From Schaalia hyovaginalis (GTDB taxonomy: Bacteria; Actinomycetota; Actinomycetes; Actinomycetales; Actinomycetaceae): a stretch of DNA of 64,000 nucleotides. The notes under the pieces are model-generated. The model saw nothing but the letters and a program-made list of their open reading frames with translations. It searched no databases and was not told the DNA's origin. Made by a program: the position numbers and the translations under genes. Location: contig NZ_JACHMK010000001.1 in NCBI RefSeq assembly GCF_014208035.1, positions 868,001 to 932,000 of the forward strand, read 5' to 3'. Shown here piece by piece: positions 8,756 to 30,113 of the stretch (position 1 is its first letter; every line of letters begins with the position of its first letter).

Positions 8756-9760
8756 GTGACCCGATCCTCGAAGAACGCTCCCGCCTCCCGTCTCGATCCG
8801 AAGCTGCCCGAAGGGGCCGTGCCTTCGGACTCGGGCCTCCTCGGCCCGATCGAGGTCAAGGCGATCGCCGACGCGCTCGGCATCCGGCCGACGAAGGTCC
8901 TCGGTCAGAATTTCGTCCACGACGCGGGAACCGTCCGCAGGATCGTCAGGGCCGGCGGCGTCGAGGCGGGCGACGAGGTCGTCGAGGTCGGGCCCGGACT
9001 TGGCTCCCTCACCCTTGCGATCCTGGAGGCCGGCGCTAGGGTCCGCGCCGTCGAAATCGACCCCCCTCTGGCCGCGGCCCTGCCCGAGACCGTGCGCTCG
9101 CGCATGCCCGAAGCGGCCGAGCGCTTCCACGTGGTGACGATGGACGCGACGGCGCTCAGGGGGGTGGAGGACTTCGGGGTCGACTGGCCCGCGCCGACGA
9201 AACTCGTCGCGAACCTGCCCTACAACGTCGCAGTCCCGGTCCTGCTCGCCATGCTCGAGTCCTTCCCCTCGCTCACCGATCTCCTCGTCATGGTCCAGTC
9301 CGAAGTCGCCGACAGGCTCGCCGCGGCCCCGGGATCGCGCACCTACGGCGTCCCCTCGGTCAAGGCCGGGTGGTACGGCAGGGTCGAACGGGCCGGAACG
9401 ATCGGGCGCACCGTCTTCTGGCCGGTTCCGAACGTCGACTCCGCCCTCGTGCGCATCTCGCGCTCGGCCGAGCCCCGCGGCGATGAGCCGCTCCGGCGCG
9501 CGACCTTCGAGGTCTGCGACGTCGCCTTCGGCCAGCGCCGCAAGACGCTGCGCGCCGCCCTGAAGAACTGGGCGGGCTCGGCCGGGGGAGCGGGCCTCCT
9601 CCTCGAGCGGGCGGGCATCGACCCGGGCCGGCGCGGGGAGACCCTCGACGTCGACGAATTCGTCGCGCTCGGCCGCGCAGTCCTCGAGCTCCGCGCCGCC
9701 GAGCTCCTGCCGCGCCGCATCGACCCGAGGCGCGCGCGTTTGGAGGAAGCCGATGCGTGA
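8756..9760 (+). CDS. ksgA: 16S rRNA dimethyladenosine transferase
   Basis: 334-residue RsmA/KsgA, which dimethylates two adjacent adenosines near the 3' end of 16S rRNA during small-subunit assembly. The SAM-binding entry LGQNFVHD (about 49-56), motif [10 protein letters not shown] (77-85) and the catalytic NLPYN (153-157) are all present. The protein carries about 30 extra N-terminal residues compared with E. coli. GTG 8756 is supported by the -10 hexamer just upstream. The stop overlaps the ispE start by 8 nt, as in other actinobacteria. Confidence 0.95.
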
Positions 9761-10733
9761 GGCCACCGCCTCCGCGCCCGGGAAGATCAATCTCGCACTC
9801 CGCGCCGGAGCCCCCGCCGAGGACGGCTATCACCCGCTCGTCACCGTCTTCGAAGCGCTGAACCTGCGCGAAACCGTTCGTGTCCGCACGAGCCGCGCCC
9901 CCGGGATCAGGGTCACCACCACGGCCCACCGGCCCGACGGCTCAGTCGATGAGCTCACGACCCGGGCGATGCGCGACCTCGACCCGACGACGCACCTGGC
10001 CTACCGGGCGGCGCGGATCCTTCAGAAGCTCGCCGCCGCCGGCCCCTGGGCCGCGACGGCCGCGGGCATCGAGATCGAGGTCGACAAGCGCGTCCCCATG
10101 GCCGGGGGAATGGCCGGGGGCTCGGCGGACGCCGCCGCCGCCCTCGTCGCCTGCAATGCGCTGTGGGGGCTCGGCCTCGATGCGAAGCGCCTCGAACTCA
10201 TCGGACGGACACTCGGAGCCGATGTCCCTGCGTGCCTGGCCGGGGGGATCTCGCTCGGCACCGGGCGTGGCGATGAGATGGAGTCCCTGGACCGGGGCGG
10301 AGTCGAGGCCCGTCATCATTGGGCGATCGCACTCGCGCATGAGGGCCTGTCCACTCCGGAGGTCTTCCGCGCGCTCGATCGAGCAGGAGGCCCGGCGGGC
10401 CGGTGGCGCGATCTGCCCGACCCCTCGAGGATCCGCGCGCTGCCCTTCACGGGCGGGGCCGCAGAACTCGCCCCCCACCTGTCCAACGATCTTCAGGACA
10501 CGGCCCTGCGCCTCCGGCCCGAGCTCGGCCGGACTATCGCGGCCGCCGAGGAGGCGGGCGCGCTCGCCGTCCTGCTCTCCGGCTCGGGCCCCTCGATCGG
10601 GGCGCTCGCAGCCGATGCCGAATCGGCGCGCGCGATCGCCTCGGCCCTCGCGGGGCTCGACTCGGTCGCCGAAGCCTTCACCACTTTCGGACCCGTCCCG
10701 GGTGCCCGGCTCGAATCAGGAGAATCCCGCTAA
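9753..10733 (+). CDS. ispE: 4-diphosphocytidyl-2-C-methyl-D-erythritol kinase
   Basis: 326 residues of the GHMP kinase superfamily. IspE phosphorylates CDP-methylerythritol in the non-mevalonate isoprenoid pathway. The N-terminal [10 protein letters not shown] motif and the ATP-binding [16 protein letters not shown] loop (about 115-130) are diagnostic, and a third GHMP motif appears as [12 protein letters not shown] near the C terminus. It overlaps ksgA by 8 nt, and its stop codon abuts the ATG of the ABC-F gene, so these genes are translationally linked. Confidence 0.95.
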
Positions 10734-12599
10734 ATGGCGCATCTTCTCGGCACGCAGTCCCTCGCCGTCCTCGCGGGTTCGCGCAGACTCCTCGAAGACG
10801 TCACGCTCGGCATCGAGGACGCTTCGCGCGTCGGGATCCTCGGGCCCAACGGTGCGGGCAAGTCGACCCTCCTGCGCCTCGTCGCCGGCGTTCAAGAAGC
10901 CGCGTCGGGCCTGCTCACCAAGCGCGAGGGCGTGCGCGTGGTCCTCCTCGATCAGAAGGACTCCTTCGACCCGGAGCTCCCCGTCGTGGAGGCCGTGCAC
11001 CCCGGTCTGGCGGAGTACGAGTGGGCTTCGGATCCCCGGGTGCGCGACATCCACGCGGGACTCCTGGCGGACATCGACCTCGCCTCCCGCGTGGGGGACC
11101 TGTCCGGCGGTCAGCGCCGGAGGGTCGCTCTCGCGAGGGTCCTGTGCGCGCCCAGCGAGGTCGTCTGCCTCGACGAGCCGACGAACCACCTCGATGTCGA
11201 GGGCGTCGCCTGGCTCGCCGCGCACCTCAATGCGCGCTTCGCCAGGCCCGGGGCCGTGGGCGCGCTGCTCGTGGTCACCCACGACCGCTGGTTCCTCGAC
11301 GCGGTGTGCGAACACATCTGGGAGGTCGTCCCCGGCATCGACCCCGGAGGCGACCGGCCCCAGATCCCCGGTCGCGTCGAGGTCTACGACGGCTCCTACG
11401 CCGCCTACACGCTCGCCCGCGCCGAACGCCTGCGCCAGGCTGACGTCGCGGCCGTGAAGCGCAAGAACCTCCTCACGAAGGAGCTCGCCTGGCTGCGCCG
11501 GGGCGCGCCCGCCCGCACCTCGAAGCCGAAGTTCCACATCGAGGCCGCCGAGGCCCTCATCGCGGACGTCCCGCCGCCGCGCGACACCGTCGAGCTCATG
11601 AAGACGGCGAGCGCGCGCCTGGGCAAGGACGTCCTCGATCTCGAAGACGTCACCCTCGCCTTCGGGCGCCCGGACGGCTCGACCAACACGATCTTCGACT
11701 CGGTGACCCTCCGGCTCGCCCCGGGTGAACGCGTCGGCGTCGTCGGCGTGAACGGCGCCGGGAAGACGAGCCTGCTCAATCTTCTCCGCGGCGATCTGGC
11801 CCCCGATTCCGGGCGCGTCAAACGGGGGAAGACCGTCGAGGTCGCGACCCTGTCCCAGGACACGCACGAACTCGACGCGCTCGCGGACGTGCGCGTCGTC
11901 GAGGCCGTCGCCGCAGTCGCGCAGACCTGCATCGTCGAGGGCAGGGAACTCACCGCTTCGCAGATGACCGAGCGCATGGGGTTCACCCGTCAGCGCGCCT
12001 ACACGCGGATCAGGGAGATCTCGGGCGGCGAGCGCCGACGCCTCCAGCTCATGCGCCTGCTCATGGCCTCCCCGAACGTCCTCCTCCTCGATGAGCCGAC
12101 GAACGACCTCGACACCGATACCCTCGCCGCGATGGAGGACCTGCTCGATTCCTTCCCCGGGACCCTCGTCGTCGTCTCGCACGACCGCTACCTGCTCGAG
12201 CGCGTGACCGATCACCAGGTGGCGCTGCTGGGGGACGGGACGATCCGCGCCCTGCCCGGCGGGGTCGAGCAGTACCTGCGCCTGCGGTCCGAGGGCGGGG
12301 CCGCGCAGACCCCGCAGCCGACGCCCGCCGAAGCGCTGCCGCAGGCCCCGGCGCTGAGCGACGCCGCCGCGCGGCGGGCCGCGAAGAAGGAGGCGGATCG
12401 GATCGAGCGGCGCCTGGAGAGGCTCCGGAGCGAAGCGGGGGGTCTCGAGGCGCGCCTGGAAGCGCTCGGGCACGAGGTCGCATCGGATCCTTCCGCGGTG
12501 TCGGAGCTCCAGGAGGCGTCGGCACGGCATTCCCGTGTGCTGTCCGAGATTGCCGAGCTCGAGGACGCGTGGCTTCAGGCCGCCGAGCTCCTCGAATAG
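10734..12599 (+). CDS. ABC-F family ATPase (Uup-like)
   Basis: 621-residue soluble protein with two ABC domains and no membrane segment, the layout of the ABC-F translation factors that act on the ribosome. Walker A motifs are GPNGAGKST (37-45) and GVNGAGKTS (about 338-346). Signatures are LSGGQRRR and ISGGERRR, and both DEPTNHLD/DEPTNDLD Walker B boxes are intact. The C-terminal 60-70 residues form a charged coiled coil as in Uup. It starts directly after the ispE TAA with AGGAGA upstream. Its exact ribosomal role, and any link to antibiotic resistance, cannot be decided from sequence. Confidence 0.9.
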   Translation: MAHLLGTQSLAVLAGSRRLLEDVTLGIEDASRVGILGPNGAGKSTLLRLVAGVQEAASGLLTKREGVRVVLLDQKDSFDPELPVVEAVHPGLAEYEWASDPRVRDIHAGLLADIDLASRVGDLSGGQRRRVALARVLCAPSEVVCLDEPTNHLDVEGVAWLAAHLNARFARPGAVGALLVVTHDRWFLDAVCEHIWEVVPGIDPGGDRPQIPGRVEVYDGSYAAYTLARAERLRQADVAAVKRKNLLTKELAWLRRGAPARTSKPKFHIEAAEALIADVPPPRDTVELMKTASARLGKDVLDLEDVTLAFGRPDGSTNTIFDSVTLRLAPGERVGVVGVNGAGKTSLLNLLRGDLAPDSGRVKRGKTVEVATLSQDTHELDALADVRVVEAVAAVAQTCIVEGRELTASQMTERMGFTRQRAYTRIREISGGERRRLQLMRLLMASPNVLLLDEPTNDLDTDTLAAMEDLLDSFPGTLVVVSHDRYLLERVTDHQVALLGDGTIRALPGGVEQYLRLRSEGGAAQTPQPTPAEALPQAPALSDAAARRAAKKEADRIERRLERLRSEAGGLEARLEALGHEVASDPSAVSELQEASARHSRVLSEIAELEDAWLQAAELLE

Positions 12600-25467: not shown

Positions 25468-25529
25468 GGCCCCGGGGTGGGAGGATGGCATCTAGGATCT
25501 CTTCGGGTTTCGACCATGGAAGGAAGATG

Positions 25530-26165
25530 ATGGCTGCCCGCACCGCCTCCCCGCAGTTCCAGATGCCCGTCATGCCCTCGGGCACCGAGGTCGCTTCGTA
25601 CCGCACCTACGTGGAGGCGCAGGGAGCCGTCGACTACCTCGCCGACCGGGAATTCGACGTCAAGTCGATCACGATCGTCGGCACGGACCTCCACCTCGTG
25701 GAACGCGTGACCGGCCGTTTGACGATGGGGCGGGCGGCCCTCTCCGGCGCCTCCTCGGGAGCCCTGTGGGGCGCCTTCATGGGGCTCATGATGTCTTTCG
25801 CCGCCCCGAGCCGATCGGCGCTCCTGTGGGTGATGTTCGGAGTGGCCGGCGGTGCTCTCGCGGGGATCGTGATGTCGGGCCTGCTGTACGCGATGACCGG
25901 GGGCCGCAGGGACTTCACCTCCTCCTCGCAGGTGGTCGCCTCCCGCTACGCGGTCCTGGCTTCGGCCGACGTCGACCGGGCCTTCCAGATGCTGCAGAAG
26001 ACGCCCGGCAATCAGATGCGCCCCCGGCCCGCGCGGGTGCGCCCCGAGGAGGAGGGGCCGACCGAGTACGGTTCGCGCCCCGATGAGCAGCCGCGATTCG
26101 GCGTGCGGCTGAGCGACGCGTCGGAGCGAACCCGGGAATCGGACGGTTCCGGAACAGTGTCATAG
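25530..26165 (+). CDS. YflT/GSP17M-like membrane protein
   Basis: 211 residues. The N terminus (about 15-70) resembles the general stress protein 17M/YflT domain with SYRTYVEAQGAVDYLAD and an ITIVGTDLHLVERV strand. Two glycine-rich membrane segments follow (about 80-135), then a polar, Arg-rich tail. Its role is unknown; homologues lie beside the mgtE-like gene in other actinobacteria. ATG 25530 is preferred over 25527 for spacing from the GGAAGG site. It is divergent from the MgtE-N/CBS gene. Confidence 0.75.
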   Translation: MAARTASPQFQMPVMPSGTEVASYRTYVEAQGAVDYLADREFDVKSITIVGTDLHLVERVTGRLTMGRAALSGASSGALWGAFMGLMMSFAAPSRSALLWVMFGVAGGALAGIVMSGLLYAMTGGRRDFTSSSQVVASRYAVLASADVDRAFQMLQKTPGNQMRPRPARVRPEEEGPTEYGSRPDEQPRFGVRLSDASERTRESDGSGTVS

Positions 26166-26178
26166 CGCCTCGGGGCGC
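26165..26178 (+). terminator. Short terminator hairpin after the YflT-like gene
   Basis: GCGCC-TCGG-GGCGC at 26165-26178 is followed by TTT and begins at the last base of the stop codon. Confidence 0.45.
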
Positions 26179-26214
26179 TTTCGCCTTGATTGGCCCGCGA
26201 TCCCGTTCGCGACC

Positions 26215-26243
26215 TTGACCGCAATAAGGGGAGTGCCTAGCCT
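26215..26243 (+). promoter_or_regulatory. Promoter of the small secreted peptide gene
   Basis: TTGACC (26215-26220) and TAGCCT (26238-26243) are separated by exactly 17 bp. The expected start near 26250 gives a leader of about 60 nt before ATG 26312. This is the best -35/-10 pair seen on the plus strand. Confidence 0.65.
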
Positions 26244-26265
26244 GGATCATGGGCCTGGACCTCGT

Positions 26266-26297
26266 GGATCTCAAGGGGGAGATCCGGTTTCCCCCTT
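26266..26297 (+). other. Two mutually exclusive leader hairpins
   Basis: GGATCTC (26266-26272) pairs with GAGATCC (26279-26285). Alternatively AAGGGGGA (26273-26280) pairs with TCCCCCTT (26290-26297). Both stems are perfect and share bases, so only one can form. The second ends 6 nt before the AAGGAG ribosome binding site of the peptide gene. An attenuation or translation switch is plausible but unproven. Confidence 0.5.
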
Positions 26298-26311
26298 ATC
26301 GCGAAGGAGCG

Positions 26312-26500
26312 ATGACAGTGAACATGAAGAAGAGGGTTGTCGGGGTGTTCGCCGCTGCGGCATTGGCTTCGGGCGGTTTCCTTGCGGTTCCGGCGCTGGC
26401 GTCGAGTCCTCACACGAGCGCCCAAGCATTCACATGCGTTCATTCGGTCTTGTACTCGGGAGGTTATTCCCTGGCCGACGGATGCAGCGCGTCCAATTAA
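26312..26500 (+). CDS. Small secreted peptide, frame interrupted by TAA
   Basis: 62 residues to the first stop. MTVNMKKR is followed by a classical signal peptide with a likely cut after PALA, leaving about 32 residues (SSPHTSAQ to CSASN). AAGGAG precedes the ATG. The reading frame stays open for 38 more codons beyond TAA (26498-26500), encoding a Trp-, Gln- and Arg-rich tail with one Cys, and ends at TGA 26615-26617, which overlaps the lipoprotein ATG. The family is not recognised. GC content is visibly lower than in neighbouring genes. It could be an exported bacteriocin or signal peptide; the tail may be lost, recoded, or hidden by a base-call error. Confidence 0.65.
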   Translation: MTVNMKKRVVGVFAAAALASGGFLAVPALASSPHTSAQAFTCVHSVLYSGGYSLADGCSASN

Positions 26501-26617
26501 AAGGAGAAGGTCAACGGCACGTGGCGAAGTGCCGGTTGGCAACCCCGAGGAACTAAATCGCGTTTCTGGCAGTGTTTCAGCGGATGGCAGCAGAGTTCCT
26601 ATGATCAGAGGCTGTGA
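26501..26617 (+). pseudogene. In-frame continuation of the peptide gene past TAA
   Basis: 38 sense codons follow the TAA in the same frame. They read KEKVNGTWRSAG, then WQPRGTKSRFWQCF, then SGWQQSSYDQRL, ending in TGA at 26615-26617. The TGA shares its last base with ATG 26617 of the next gene (TGATG), the usual arrangement for coupled translation. This fits a once continuous gene of about 101 codons. An internal AAGGAG at 26501-26506 has no convincing start downstream. Confidence 0.5.
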
Positions 26618-27222
26618 TGAGGGAGGGCCTTCTTTCGTGCGCCTTCATAGGTGCTGCGACTCTCCTTTTGTCTTCCTGTACATACTTTGATTCGTACAGT
26701 CAGTCGGCGATGTCTGGCCAGTCAGAGGTGGTGTCGCAGTTTACGGGCCCTTATGGCCCAGAGCTCGCTCAAGCCTACCGGGATTCTGAGTCGGAGTATT
26801 TCCGTGAAGCGGTGCGTGACGGAACGATTACCGATTCGGAGTATTTCGAAGCTCAAAATCGATCGCGTCAATGCCTGGAGGAGAACGGCTTCACTGGAAT
26901 CGTCATGAATCCCGATGGGACGGGCAGTATCGATGCTCGGACGGACATCAGTGAAGAGGAGGAATCTCGCCTTAAGGTCGACTGCGATACGAAATCAGGG
27001 CTTATCGACACGGAGATCTGGTACCGCTCTTTGAAAGCGAATCCTGAGAATGTCGATTGGCCGAGTGCGGAGAGGGATTGTCTGGTGCGGGCGGGGCTTC
27101 TTGAGGCGGGTGCCACGGTTGAGGAGATGAATGAGTGGTATATGAGCGGTGATCCGGCGTCGCAGTCGCGTGCCGCGTATGTCTGCTCGCAGGACGCTCT
27201 CGGGCACCTCAGCCTCCAGTGA
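26617..27222 (+). CDS. Secreted lipoprotein, unknown family
   Basis: 201 residues. The N terminus MREGLLSCAFIGAATLLLSSC carries a lipobox (LSSC, lipidated Cys21), so the mature protein is tethered outside the membrane. The rest is acidic and helical, with five Cys: RQCLEEN, KVDCDTK, RDCLVRA and YVCSQ after the lipid Cys. Codon use is richer in A/T than in the flanking genes. It overlaps the peptide frame's TGA, and GTG 26614 is an alternative start. Its position suggests an immunity, sensor or export accessory protein for the peptide, by inference only. Confidence 0.75.
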   Translation: MREGLLSCAFIGAATLLLSSCTYFDSYSQSAMSGQSEVVSQFTGPYGPELAQAYRDSESEYFREAVRDGTITDSEYFEAQNRSRQCLEENGFTGIVMNPDGTGSIDARTDISEEEESRLKVDCDTKSGLIDTEIWYRSLKANPENVDWPSAERDCLVRAGLLEAGATVEEMNEWYMSGDPASQSRAAYVCSQDALGHLSLQ

Positions 27223-27235
27223 AGCGCATGATGCC

Positions 27236-27265
27236 GCGGGCCCGACGCGCAGACGTCGGGCCCGC
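27236..27265 (+). terminator. Terminator-like hairpin after the lipoprotein
   Basis: GCGGGCCCGACG (27236-27247) pairs perfectly with CGTCGGGCCCGC (27254-27265) around a 6-nt loop, 14 nt after the lipoprotein stop and 21 nt before the adaptor gene. It may limit read-through from peptide to transporter genes. Confidence 0.65.
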
Positions 27266-27286
27266 AGCATGCGGGAGGGAGAAACA

Positions 27287-28327
27287 ATGACACGAGCACT
27301 TCTGGGAATCGCGGCCCTTGTCGTCGCCATCGGCGCGGGAGCCGCCCTCGGGGCGCTCCTCTTCCGACCTGTTTCCCCCCGGGGGCTCGAAGAAACGCCT
27401 GCCGTCGTCGACACCCCCGTCGTCCAGCGCACCATCGACGACAGAAGGAGCATTCGCCTGGCGCTCGAACTCGGGCCGAGCGCATCCCTCAAATCTCCGA
27501 GCGACGGCCTCATCACCGAATCGGCGTGTCAGGCGGGCCAAGCGATCGCCTCCGGCGACCATATGATGACCCTCGGCGACCAGAGGCTCTACGCGCTGGC
27601 CACCGCCATCCCCCTGTGGCGCGACCTGGGTCCGGGCGATCAAGGCGACGACGTCACTGCCCTGCAGGCGGAGCTTCAACGCCTCGGATACCTCGTTGAC
27701 GCCGACGGGCGTATCGGTCCGCAAACCCTGCGCTCCGTCGCCGACCTCGTCGGCCTGAGCGGCACCCCCGCGTTCTCCTCCTACGCGCTGATCCCCCGGG
27801 CCTCCTTCGTCTGGCTCCCCGAGCCGAGCGTCGTTCCCTCCTCCTGCGCCGCATCCGCCGGGGAGGGCATCGTAGAGCACGATGAAATCGCCGTACTCGA
27901 TCGCACCCTCGTGCGCGCGCGAGTCGTCGACATGCCCGCCGATCTCCTGCCCGGACAGCGACTCCTGACGGTCGATGGACGCGACTTCCCCGTCGAGGAA
28001 GCCGGGATCCTCGAAGACCCGCAAGCCCTCGCCGAGTTGCAAACCACCTCCTCGTACCAGCACTGGTTATCGGCGCAAAATGATGAGCCCGCTCCGAATC
28101 TCGACGCCTCACTCAGCCTCGCCGAGCCGACCCTCGTTCACGCGGTCAGCCCATCAGCGATCTACGAGGTCGACGGGGCCGATGCCTGCGTCCTCGACAA
28201 CGGCCTCCCCAGACCGGTGAAGATCCTCTCCTCCGAACTGGGGCAGACCCACATCCTGTTCCCGGACGGGGCGCCCGCACCCGCCTCCCTGCCCGCCCCG
28301 CCCCGAAACGCCGCATCATGCAGGTAG
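27287..28327 (+). CDS. Membrane adaptor with peptidoglycan-binding domain (HlyD-like export subunit)
   Basis: 346 residues. An N-terminal membrane anchor (about 3-27) is followed by a barrel-sandwich-like segment (LKSPSDGLITESAC), then a PG_binding_1 domain at about residues 110-150 (GDDVTALQAELQRLGYLVDADGRIGPQTL), then beta-rich domains resembling periplasmic adaptor proteins. Such adaptors pair with MacB-type ABC exporters in actinobacteria, linking the pump to the cell wall. GGGAGGGAG precedes the ATG. The stop overlaps the ATPase start by 10 nt. It probably belongs with the peptide and lipoprotein upstream. Confidence 0.8.
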   Translation: MTRALLGIAALVVAIGAGAALGALLFRPVSPRGLEETPAVVDTPVVQRTIDDRRSIRLALELGPSASLKSPSDGLITESACQAGQAIASGDHMMTLGDQRLYALATAIPLWRDLGPGDQGDDVTALQAELQRLGYLVDADGRIGPQTLRSVADLVGLSGTPAFSSYALIPRASFVWLPEPSVVPSSCAASAGEGIVEHDEIAVLDRTLVRARVVDMPADLLPGQRLLTVDGRDFPVEEAGILEDPQALAELQTTSSYQHWLSAQNDEPAPNLDASLSLAEPTLVHAVSPSAIYEVDGADACVLDNGLPRPVKILSSELGQTHILFPDGAPAPASLPAPPRNAASCR

Positions 28328-29043
28328 TCATCGATTCCGTCGGACATCGTTTCGCCGGAGGCCCCTGGCTGTTCAAAGGATTGAGCGCGCGCCTCGTCCC
28401 CGGGCAGATCTACGCCCTCGTCGGCCCCTCGGGAAGCGGCAAGAGCACGCTGCTCAGTCTCATCGCCGGATGGACGGCCCCCGCCGAAGGGACGATCGCG
28501 CGCCAGGGGGAGGGGAGGACCGCATGGGTGTTTCAAAACCCCCACGGGACGCCCAGTCGGAGCGTCCTCGATCACGTCGCCTTCCCCCTTCTCGCTGCGG
28601 GCGCCCGCCGCTGCGAAGCCGAAGCAGAAGCATTCGACCTGCTGCGACGATTCGGATTGGACCCGCTCGCCCATCAAGGCTTCCACAGCCTCTCCGGGGG
28701 AGAAGCGCAGCGTCTCATGCTCGCACGAGCCGCGGCCTCCCGCCCCGCCCTCTTCCTCATCGACGAACCGACCGCCCAACTGGACCTGCTCACCCGCAAG
28801 GACGTCAACACGACGATCGCCGCTCTAGCTGACCCCTCAACGATCGTCGTCATCGCCACCCATGACGAGGCGACTCGGGACATGTGCACCCGAGTCATCG
28901 ACCTGCGCGCGCACCAGGAAGGACCGGAAGCCGCGCAAGCGGGCGACGGAGGCCCGGCAGCCGACGAGGGCGCCGAAAGCGCCTCCGATTCCTCTCAGCC
29001 CCGCACGCCGCAGGGCCTCCGTCGGCGATGGGGGCTCCGATGA
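28318..29043 (+). CDS. ABC transporter ATPase (MacB/LolD type)
   Basis: 241 residues. Walker A GPSGSGKST near residue 40, Q-loop VFQNPHG, signature LSGGEAQR, Walker B LFLIDEP and switch His in VIATHDE are all intact, so it should be an active ATPase. The C-terminal 45 residues are a low-complexity Gln/Ala/Ser tail. The length and the LolD-like signature match exporters of peptides or lipids. It overlaps both neighbours (10 nt upstream, ATGA downstream), so the three proteins form one complex. Confidence 0.9.
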   Translation: MQVVIDSVGHRFAGGPWLFKGLSARLVPGQIYALVGPSGSGKSTLLSLIAGWTAPAEGTIARQGEGRTAWVFQNPHGTPSRSVLDHVAFPLLAAGARRCEAEAEAFDLLRRFGLDPLAHQGFHSLSGGEAQRLMLARAAASRPALFLIDEPTAQLDLLTRKDVNTTIAALADPSTIVVIATHDEATRDMCTRVIDLRAHQEGPEAAQAGDGGPAADEGAESASDSSQPRTPQGLRRRWGLR

Positions 29044-30113
29044 GATGGACGTCCATCCTGAGCGAGAGCTGGCGGGACACGGTCAGCGGGACGAGCCGGG
29101 CGCTCGTCTGGGGGATCGCAGTCCTCGCCCTCGTCACGGCCGCAGTGAGCGCCGAGATCCTCCAATCGCACGCCGTCAGCCTCGCGGCCCGCGAATACAC
29201 CGCCAAAGGCGCATCCATCATCACTCTCCAAGCACCCGGACAGATCGATCCGACGGCGTGCGAAGCACTCAATGAGGTCCAGGGCGTCCGCGCCGCAGGC
29301 GCCCTCGCGATCGAAGAGGAACGGTTGCGCCTGTCCGTCCTGCCCTCGGCGCCGGTCCCCGTCGCGACTGTCACCGCCTCCTTCCCCACCCTCCTCCTCC
29401 CCGATTCCGGTTTCCGGCCGGGAGCAGTGATATCCGACCAAGTCGCCGAGGCGACAGGGGCTGTACCCGGGGACACGATCGCGAGCGATCAGGGCGGACT
29501 CGTCGTCTCCGGCGTGTACCCCTATCCGGACGACGGGAGGGCCTCCGGATACGGGTACATGATTCTCGTGCCCTCGAACACGAGGAGCGTCTACGACGAG
29601 TGCTGGGTCGATGCCTGGCCCCAATCCGATCTGGTGACCGGTCTCGTCTACTCCGCCCTCGTCCCTGCGAAGGACTCGCAGGAAGCGACTGCGAGACTCG
29701 GTCAGCTCAACCCCGTCCTCGGCGCGCGATTCGCGGGCAAAGATCAATTCGACGCCAGAATCACCCGATTCTCCCCGATCGGAGTCGCTGCGGCCTGCCT
29801 GGTGCTCGGTTTCGCCTCCGTACGGCTGCGGCGCCTCCAACTGGCCTCGGGCCTGCATGCGGGCGCCTCGAGAAGAGACATGGCCGGGATCGTGCTCGTC
29901 GAAACCCTGTGGTGGCTCGGCCCTGCGATGCTGCTGTCCGAGTCGGCGGCGATCATCCTCATGGCCGGGCTCGGCGTGATCGATGATCCCGCGCCGTTGA
30001 TCCTGACGAACCGCATCATCTGGGCGGCAACGGTCGCATCCCTTGCGGGAGCCGCCATCGGCTGGTCAGCGACGCGCGAAGATCACCTCTTCTCCTACTT
30101 CAAGACGCGATGA
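29040..30113 (+). CDS. FtsX-like ABC permease
   Basis: 357 residues with the MacB/FtsX topology: one N-terminal membrane segment (about 18-40), an extracellular domain of about 210 residues, and three C-terminal segments (about 250-272, 290-320 and 330-352). ATG 29040 is chosen for the ATGA overlap with the ATPase stop; an upstream ATG at 29028 is also in frame. With its adaptor and ATPase it should make a tripartite-like exporter. The neighbouring aminopeptidase gene is convergent, 18 nt away. Confidence 0.85.
   Translation: MRWTSILSESWRDTVSGTSRALVWGIAVLALVTAAVSAEILQSHAVSLAAREYTAKGASIITLQAPGQIDPTACEALNEVQGVRAAGALAIEEERLRLSVLPSAPVPVATVTASFPTLLLPDSGFRPGAVISDQVAEATGAVPGDTIASDQGGLVVSGVYPYPDDGRASGYGYMILVPSNTRSVYDECWVDAWPQSDLVTGLVYSALVPAKDSQEATARLGQLNPVLGARFAGKDQFDARITRFSPIGVAAACLVLGFASVRLRRLQLASGLHAGASRRDMAGIVLVETLWWLGPAMLLSESAAIILMAGLGVIDDPAPLILTNRIIWAATVASLAGAAIGWSATREDHLFSYFKTR

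What the first reader, a model, noticed from the sequence alone, without database searches (positions are those of the whole stretch)
26215..30113. Candidate undescribed peptide-export system: secreted peptide, lipoprotein, wall-binding adaptor, ABC ATPase and FtsX permease
A clear promoter drives a small peptide with a signal sequence, followed by an overlapping lipoprotein gene, a hairpin, and a three-gene exporter whose adaptor carries a peptidoglycan-binding domain. The first kilobase is lower in GC than its surroundings, hinting at acquisition. This resembles bacteriocin-immunity-export logic, but neither the peptide nor the lipoprotein matches a family I recognise.
Basis: partly seen in the sequence, partly recalled or inferred. 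Interest (0 to 1): 0.75.

Follow-up and report, generated by a model that had tools for sequence, protein, structure and literature searches.

The report
Bacteriocin-immunity locus with interrupted peptide gene
This looks like a small bacterial warfare locus, one of a widespread actinobacterial kind in which different secreted peptides sit in front of the same lipoprotein and wall-tethered pump; here the peptide gene carries an early stop, so the strain may keep the shield without the weapon.

Summary
The five genes are real and belong together. Lipoprotein, peptidoglycan-binding adaptor, ATPase and permease form a conserved actinobacterial module: 92 of 100 loci examined hold adaptor plus permease, and 85 of those 92 hold a homologous lipoprotein. 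The position in front is variable: 40 of 92 carry one of four secreted-peptide classes. The commonest (21 loci) is the lactococcin 972 bacteriocin family; the window's three-cysteine class meets no Pfam or NCBIfam cut-off and occurs in four other module loci (Schaalia, Sanguibacter, two Mycetocola). So this is a lactococcin-972-like bacteriocin/immunity locus with an unlabelled peptide and lipoprotein. The window's peptide is not a complete 62-residue gene: its frame continues past the TAA at 26498-26500 for 38 codons that match the family's C-terminal half (40.8 bits; best of 2000 shuffles 11.2). And since the peptides look Sec-exported, while 52 of 92 modules have no recognised peptide, self-protection is likelier than export. 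Function is untested; the lipoprotein does not follow the peptide class more closely than the pump does.

The parts
25485..26165 (+). upstream flank: YflT-domain protein, not part of the system; same neighbour in Actinomyces sp. B33 (G007)
   Evidence: PF11181 E 1.5e-24; synteny with L065
26215..26243 (+). promoter candidate TTGACC-17-TAGCCT
   Evidence: read from sequence; not above the scan threshold
26312..26500 (+). class A peptide gene, part before the in-frame TAA (signal-like sequence plus first half of the mature peptide, two of three family cysteines); ATG with AAGGAG at 26304-26309
   Evidence: matches A4 model positions 5-61, 58.6 bits
26501..26617 (+). remainder of the same frame, 38 codons then TGA: homologous to the C-terminal half of intact relatives; the copy is therefore interrupted
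   Evidence: matches A4 model positions 62-97, 40.8 bits against 11.2 for the best of 2000 shuffles, scored apart from the first piece
26614..27222 (+). lipoprotein gene (GTG 26614 or ATG 26617), lipobox Cys plus four family-invariant Cys
   Evidence: predicted fold mean pLDDT 88
27231..27270 (+). strong hairpin between lipoprotein and adaptor, no T-run
   Evidence: not seen by eye in the corresponding gap of G007
27287..28327 (+). membrane-fusion-like adaptor with peptidoglycan-binding domain (about 27641-27742) between two lipoyl-like half-motifs
   Evidence: profile A2 matches lipoyl-type chains at 61-104 and 181-234 and PG-binding chains at about 118-158
28318..29043 (+). ABC ATPase
   Evidence: PF00005 E 1.8e-28
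29040..30113 (+). MacB/FtsX-like permease
   Evidence: MacB_PCD E 7.1e-4, below cut-off; family alignment A1

Best explanation
The locus is an actinobacterial bacteriocin-and-self-protection locus that works like lactococcin 972 loci. Inferred mechanism: the peptide leaves by the Sec system, its signal is removed, and the three-cysteine mature peptide acts on the envelope of related bacteria (target unknown; the lactococcin 972 parallel suggests cell-wall synthesis). The lipoprotein, anchored outside the membrane, and the MacB/FtsX-type pump, tethered to the wall by the adaptor's peptidoglycan-binding domain, protect the producer by catching the peptide and moving it away from the membrane. 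In this strain the peptide gene has an in-frame stop while the other four genes are open, so the strain is most likely a non-producer that has kept the protective genes. Shown: gene content, conservation of the module, variable peptide position, the interruption in this assembly. Inferred: antibacterial activity, protective role, Sec export, target.
For: Lactococcin 972 peptides sit in the same position of the same module in 21 of 92 loci; 16 of 16 scanned members match PF09683; PF09683 is otherwise rare, 12 of 394 genomes of the class. Four peptide classes share one position, mostly just upstream of the lipoprotein. Lipoprotein homologue in 85 of 92 modules. Of 21 collected small peptides 20 have an AxA motif near the expected place, though they had been picked for a signal-like start. 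Lactococcin 972 is Sec-secreted and its two neighbour genes may be an ABC transporter for immunity (PMC4786598, PMC4055356, passages). YknWXYZ, with adaptor, ATPase and FtsX-type permease, protects Bacillus against the SDP toxin (PMC4887032 abstract; PMC4446572 passages). Pneumococcal scb loci show a similar loss: 157 of 571 genomes keep scbBC without the bacteriocin (PMC11796350, passages). Interruption.
Against: No activity or immunity assay exists. Class A and lactococcin 972 profiles align only in the signal region, and the class A structure model is uninformative (pLDDT 48.8). Of 14 PF09683 places fetched from the class only 1 adjoins the module, so lactococcin 972 peptides do not need it. 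Peptide class changes 6, 5 and 6 times on the lipoprotein, permease and adaptor trees, so specific immunity by the lipoprotein is not shown. 52 of 92 modules have no recognised peptide. PMC11796350 says that the B and C products of lactococcin 972 loci had no verified function, and that strains with scbBC alone are inhibited by producers (it adds that these strains do not express the locus under the tested conditions): keeping such genes need not mean being immune.
Confidence: 0.6

Rival explanations
1. The three-gene transporter is a dedicated exporter of the peptide, and the lipoprotein alone gives immunity.
For: Constant gene order and closeness of peptide, lipoprotein and transporter; the window ATPase scores 105.6 bits on TIGR03608, a putative bacteriocin-export ATPase model.
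Against: The TIGR03608 cut-off is 254.85 bits, not met, and several other ATPase models score higher. Peptides look Sec-exported (by eye and motif). Transporter without recognised peptide in 52 of 92 modules; peptide and lipoprotein without adjacent transporter in G005.
Confidence: 0.15
2. The lipoprotein-adaptor-ATPase-permease set is a general envelope-defence or maintenance pump against many wall-active compounds, and peptide genes settle next to it secondarily.
For: Modules without a recognised peptide are common (52 of 92), among them the Schaalia odontolytica group; peptide class changes 5-6 times on the trees; broad roles of MacB-type pumps (recalled).
Against: Several lipoprotein genes lie beside class B peptide genes in the window's own second locus (L064); the peptide frame overlaps the lipoprotein start by 4 to 25 bases in L064, L078, L079, L080, L100, L110 and L136 (starts are the longest possible, so some overlaps may be overstated).
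Confidence: 0.2
3. The in-frame stop is a sequencing or assembly error, or is read through, and the strain makes the whole peptide.
For: The rest of the frame is open and well conserved, as expected of a very recent event or an error; no second copy of this allele was found.
Against: The assembly is two contigs and rated 100% complete; I know of no read-through signal here and looked for none.
Confidence: 0.25

Closest known systems
Lactococcin 972 loci of Bacillota (Lcn972, streptococcin B)
   Same: Small Sec-type secreted peptide followed by genes ascribed to an immunity ABC transporter; peptide-less copies retained in some strains (PMC4786598, PMC4055356, PMC11796350, passages)
   Different: Window peptide is not in PF09683/TIGR01653; here an extra lipoprotein and a separate peptidoglycan-binding adaptor; ATPase below the TIGR03608 cut-off
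YknWXYZ of Bacillus
   Same: Adaptor, ATPase and FtsX/MacB-type permease that protect against an own peptide toxin (PMC4887032 abstract)
   Different: YknX has an alpha-hairpin (PMC4446572, passage); here a peptidoglycan-binding domain seems to lie in that place; lipoprotein instead of YknW; no sequence comparison with Ykn proteins was run
MacAB tripartite pump
   Same: Permease resembles MacB_PCD weakly, adaptor profile matches MacA chains weakly
   Different: No outer-membrane partner; matches below curated cut-offs
Lipoprotein-plus-pump immunity of lantibiotics (NisI with NisFEG; recalled, named in a reference of PMC4055356)
   Same: Lipoprotein and ABC pump as paired self-protection
   Different: No sequence or fold relation tested directly; the lipoprotein model has no significant PDB match (best E 0.95)

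Membership tests
Lactococcin 972 family | peptide matches PF09683 / TIGR01653 | tested here: not met
   window piece 26312-26500 and piece 26501-26614: no match; 13 class A members: neither PF09683 nor TIGR01653
Lactococcin 972 family | Sec-type signal sequence | tested here: inconclusive
   signal-like N-terminus by eye, AxA motif in relatives; no signal predictor available
Lactococcin 972 family | beta-sandwich fold | tested here: inconclusive
   class A model is strand-rich but pLDDT 48.8; no fold search was made with it for that reason
Lactococcin 972 family | binds lipid II, blocks septum formation | not testable with these tools
   needs assay
Lactococcin 972-type locus (as an arrangement) | bacteriocin gene followed by ABC transporter genes | tested here: met
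   same module carries lactococcin 972 peptides in 21 of 92 loci; in the window the peptide is class A and interrupted, and a lipoprotein gene stands between
TIGR03608 lactococcin 972 group ATPase | score above 254.85 bits | tested here: not met
   105.6 bits
MacB/FtsX-type transporter | permease over the MacB_PCD cut-off | tested here: not met
   20.4 bits, cut-off 27; 3 of 13 family members match at E up to 0.1, best 7.2e-6
MacB/FtsX-type transporter | ABC ATPase partner | tested here: met
   PF00005, 100.3 bits
Membrane-fusion (periplasmic) adaptor | lipoyl/barrel-sandwich domain | tested here: inconclusive
   HlyD_3 17 bits, cut-off 22.2; profile A2 matches lipoyl-type chains in two halves, best 5e-10; no structure predicted
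LppA (PF16708) | lipoprotein over the 26.4-bit cut-off | tested here: not met
   16.5 bits; 1 of 25 family members, the window's own, at E up to 0.1

The most novel reading that the evidence does not exclude
Actinobacteria share an undescribed modular weapon-and-shield locus: a fixed shield (lipoprotein plus a MacB-type pump whose adaptor has a peptidoglycan-binding domain where Gram-negative adaptors have the hairpin that reaches the outer-membrane channel) with an exchangeable weapon slot holding lactococcin 972 or at least three further secreted peptide classes that meet no family cut-off tested, one of them the window's three-cysteine peptide. Anything new in the slot is then a bacteriocin candidate.
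Probability: 0.5. Interest if true: 0.7.

Novelty: new variant of a known kind. Interest (0 to 1): 0.5.

Why it matters
If true, the conserved four-gene module is a handle for finding bacteriocins that share no sequence with known ones: three secreted peptide classes without an assigned family were found simply by looking in its slot. It also gives a testable idea of how a Gram-positive tripartite pump is anchored (wall-binding domain in place of the hairpin), and an actinobacterial example of a strain that seems to have kept the shield genes after losing the weapon.
Full report
WHAT IS THERE. Window 26215-30113 holds, on the + strand, a 62-codon ORF (26312-26500), a lipoprotein gene (26614 or 26617-27222), a hairpin (27231-27270), an adaptor with a peptidoglycan-binding domain (27287-28327), an ABC ATPase (28318-29043) and a MacB/FtsX-like permease (29040-30113). 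The last three overlap end to start. The region 26170-27219 has GC 0.575 against a mean of 0.688; the lowest stretches of the window all overlap it and the lowest elsewhere is 0.645. Adaptor, ATPase and permease have ordinary GC (0.67-0.68). The promoter is only a candidate: nothing on the + strand passed the scan, and TTGACC-17-TAGCCT was read by eye.

THE PEPTIDE GENE IS INTERRUPTED. In the genus (35 genomes) three places match the peptide credibly: the window, G005 (1.5e-13) and G046 (1.2e-10); the next is 0.012. In G005 and G046 the peptide is 98 and 101 aa long and runs past the place where the window has TAA. The 38 codons after the window's stop, in the same frame, match the family profile (built without the window) at positions 62-97 with 40.8 bits, directly after the first piece at 5-61 (58.6 bits); the best of 2000 shuffles of each piece gave 11.2 and 13.0 bits. 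The frame ends in TGA at 26615-26617, overlapping the lipoprotein start. Intact copies therefore exist elsewhere and this one is cut short, losing the third conserved cysteine. Whether the stop is real in the living strain, or read through, cannot be told from one assembly. The 62-aa ORF has no relative at E <= 1 in the protein database of 5.8 billion sequences, within that tool's word-based sensitivity.

THE PEPTIDE FAMILY. The intact Schaalia sp. lx-260 peptide finds only itself; an alignment with the G005, Sanguibacter and Mycetocola peptides finds 12 proteins at E <= 1 among 787 candidates, itself included, among them Mycetocola lacteus, Sanguibacter sp. Leaf3 and sequences without a name. 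Three cysteines, an alanine and a glycine are invariant in 13 sequences. No member was seen to reach a Pfam or NCBIfam cut-off (these summaries give the best E-value per family, and weak hits are told under Tried and rejected). The AlphaFold model is poor (pLDDT 48.8).

THE MODULE. From a permease alignment 80 named loci were taken from genome contigs (144 relatives found, best 80 kept): Actinomyces, Schaalia, Microbacteriaceae, Cellulomonas and relatives, Bifidobacterium, Propionibacteriaceae, Nocardiopsis, Actinoplanes and others. With 28 loci from genomes of the genus they make 108; 7 duplicate records and one locus with neither permease nor lipoprotein were dropped, leaving 100, of which 92 hold adaptor and permease. 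Close relatives were not thinned: about nine of the 92 are near-alike Schaalia odontolytica-type loci. A homologous lipoprotein is present in 85 of the 92; of the other 7, six begin less than 3.6 kb before the permease (lengths), so their upstream part is cut or short. Before removal of duplicates the lipoprotein lies within -200 to 300 bp upstream of the adaptor in 78 of 99 adaptor loci; some of the rest have over-long predicted starts, lie on the other strand or elsewhere in the locus. The lipoproteins share the lipobox cysteine and four more invariant cysteines in 25 sequences, show no Pfam hit over a cut-off in what was printed and only scattered weak NCBIfam hits, and are predicted as a helical domain with pLDDT 88 without a significant PDB match.

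THE SLOT. In 40 of 92 modules a small secreted-looking peptide of four classes lies upstream: lactococcin 972 (21), class C of Nocardiopsis and Actinoplanes type (11), class B of Actinomyces and Schaalia type (4), class A as in the window (4: G046, Sanguibacter inulinus, Mycetocola saprophilus, M. lacteus). One class C peptide (L143) lies 2.3 kb upstream of its adaptor, off the usual place. The window is a fifth class A module locus and is not among the 92. Sixteen lactococcin 972 peptides, 15 of them from module loci, were scanned and 16 of 16 match PF09683. Across 394 genomes of the class PF09683 occurs in 12, so 21 in 92 slots is far beyond background; but of 14 such places fetched only one adjoins the module, so the bacteriocin family does not depend on it. 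In the genus it occurs in 3 of 35 genomes, one of them in a module slot (L070). The other 52 modules have no class A-D peptide; a few have other small signal-bearing ORFs, and some are cut short by contig ends.

PEPTIDE AND SHIELD DO NOT SHARE ONE HISTORY ABOVE OTHERS. On trees of 39 loci the peptide class changes 6 times on the lipoprotein tree, 5 on the permease tree, 6 on the adaptor tree (quick trees, no shuffles). Class A appears in three separate parts of each tree. The slot is thus exchanged now and then, and the lipoprotein does not follow the peptide more closely than the pump does.

THE ADAPTOR. The adaptor profile matches lipoyl-type chains in two halves (61-104 and 181-234) and peptidoglycan-binding chains between them (about 118-158); 11 of 13 members match PG_binding_1 at E up to 0.1. 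In MacA-like adaptors an alpha-hairpin divides the lipoyl domain (recalled; PMC4446572 discusses hairpins in Gram-positive adaptors, passages). The inference is that a wall-binding domain stands in for the hairpin. No structure of the adaptor was predicted.

HOW IT LIKELY WORKS. Lactococcin 972 is Sec-secreted, binds lipid II, and its two neighbour genes are ascribed to immunity (PMC4786598, PMC4055356, passages), though PMC11796350 notes that these products had no verified function, and reports that scbBC-only strains are inhibited by producers while not expressing the locus in the tests made. YknWXYZ protects Bacillus from SDP with adaptor, ATPase and FtsX-type permease (PMC4887032 abstract; PMC4446572 passages). 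With signal-like peptides in all four classes, and pumps kept without peptides, protection is the likelier job of lipoprotein and pump. The nearest relative, Actinomyces sp. B33, has the module at the same chromosomal site with no class A match upstream of the lipoprotein (best 4.6 bits), and the window has a broken peptide: both look like non-producers that kept the shield genes; whether they are protected is untested. All of this is inference from gene order and homology.

VERDICT. Real, coherent, and of a known general kind, with an unlabelled peptide family, an unlabelled lipoprotein family and a broader slot-and-shield pattern that I did not meet in the listings and passages seen (open-licence papers only, few opened).

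Noticed in passing
L064 = G000:C1:1088000-1107900 (same genome, outside the window): A second locus of the same kind: full pump, a class B peptide at 9187-9537, seven lipoprotein-family ORFs including a near-repeat of 9516-10861 from 12988 onward, and short ORFs that end like the class B peptide (for example 12116-12367), which look like peptide remnants.
   Followed up: partly
L066 = G005:C1:882000-896000: Class A peptide and lipoprotein without an adjacent pump; the genome's pump lies about 143 kb away, and a second lipoprotein nearby has a stop inside.
   Followed up: partly
L112, L114, L119, L128, L134, L140, L143, L145, L147, L163, L171: Class C peptides (SYA...HG...W pattern) in Nocardiopsis, Actinoplanes, Plantactinospora and others; 10 of 11 scanned with Pfam, none over a cut-off, DUF7327 nearest. 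Their spacing recalls lactococcin 972 by eye.
   Followed up: partly
L146 and L156: Records titled Xylanimonas cellulosilytica 352_XCEL and Sanguibacter keddieii 250_SKED have the contig lengths of genomes that the genome set places in the window's own genus (G022, G011); the titles look wrong.
   Followed up: no
window 27231-27270: A 17-nt-arm hairpin with one mismatch and no T-run between lipoprotein and adaptor; may set different expression of the two halves.
   Followed up: partly
L071-L075, L091-L094: Schaalia odontolytica-type genomes keep lipoprotein and pump with no class A-D peptide in the fetched stretch.
   Followed up: partly
L193-L203, L205, L206: Lactococcin 972 peptides elsewhere in the class without the module nearby, some in tandem pairs or triplets; what protects those producers was not looked at.
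   Followed up: no
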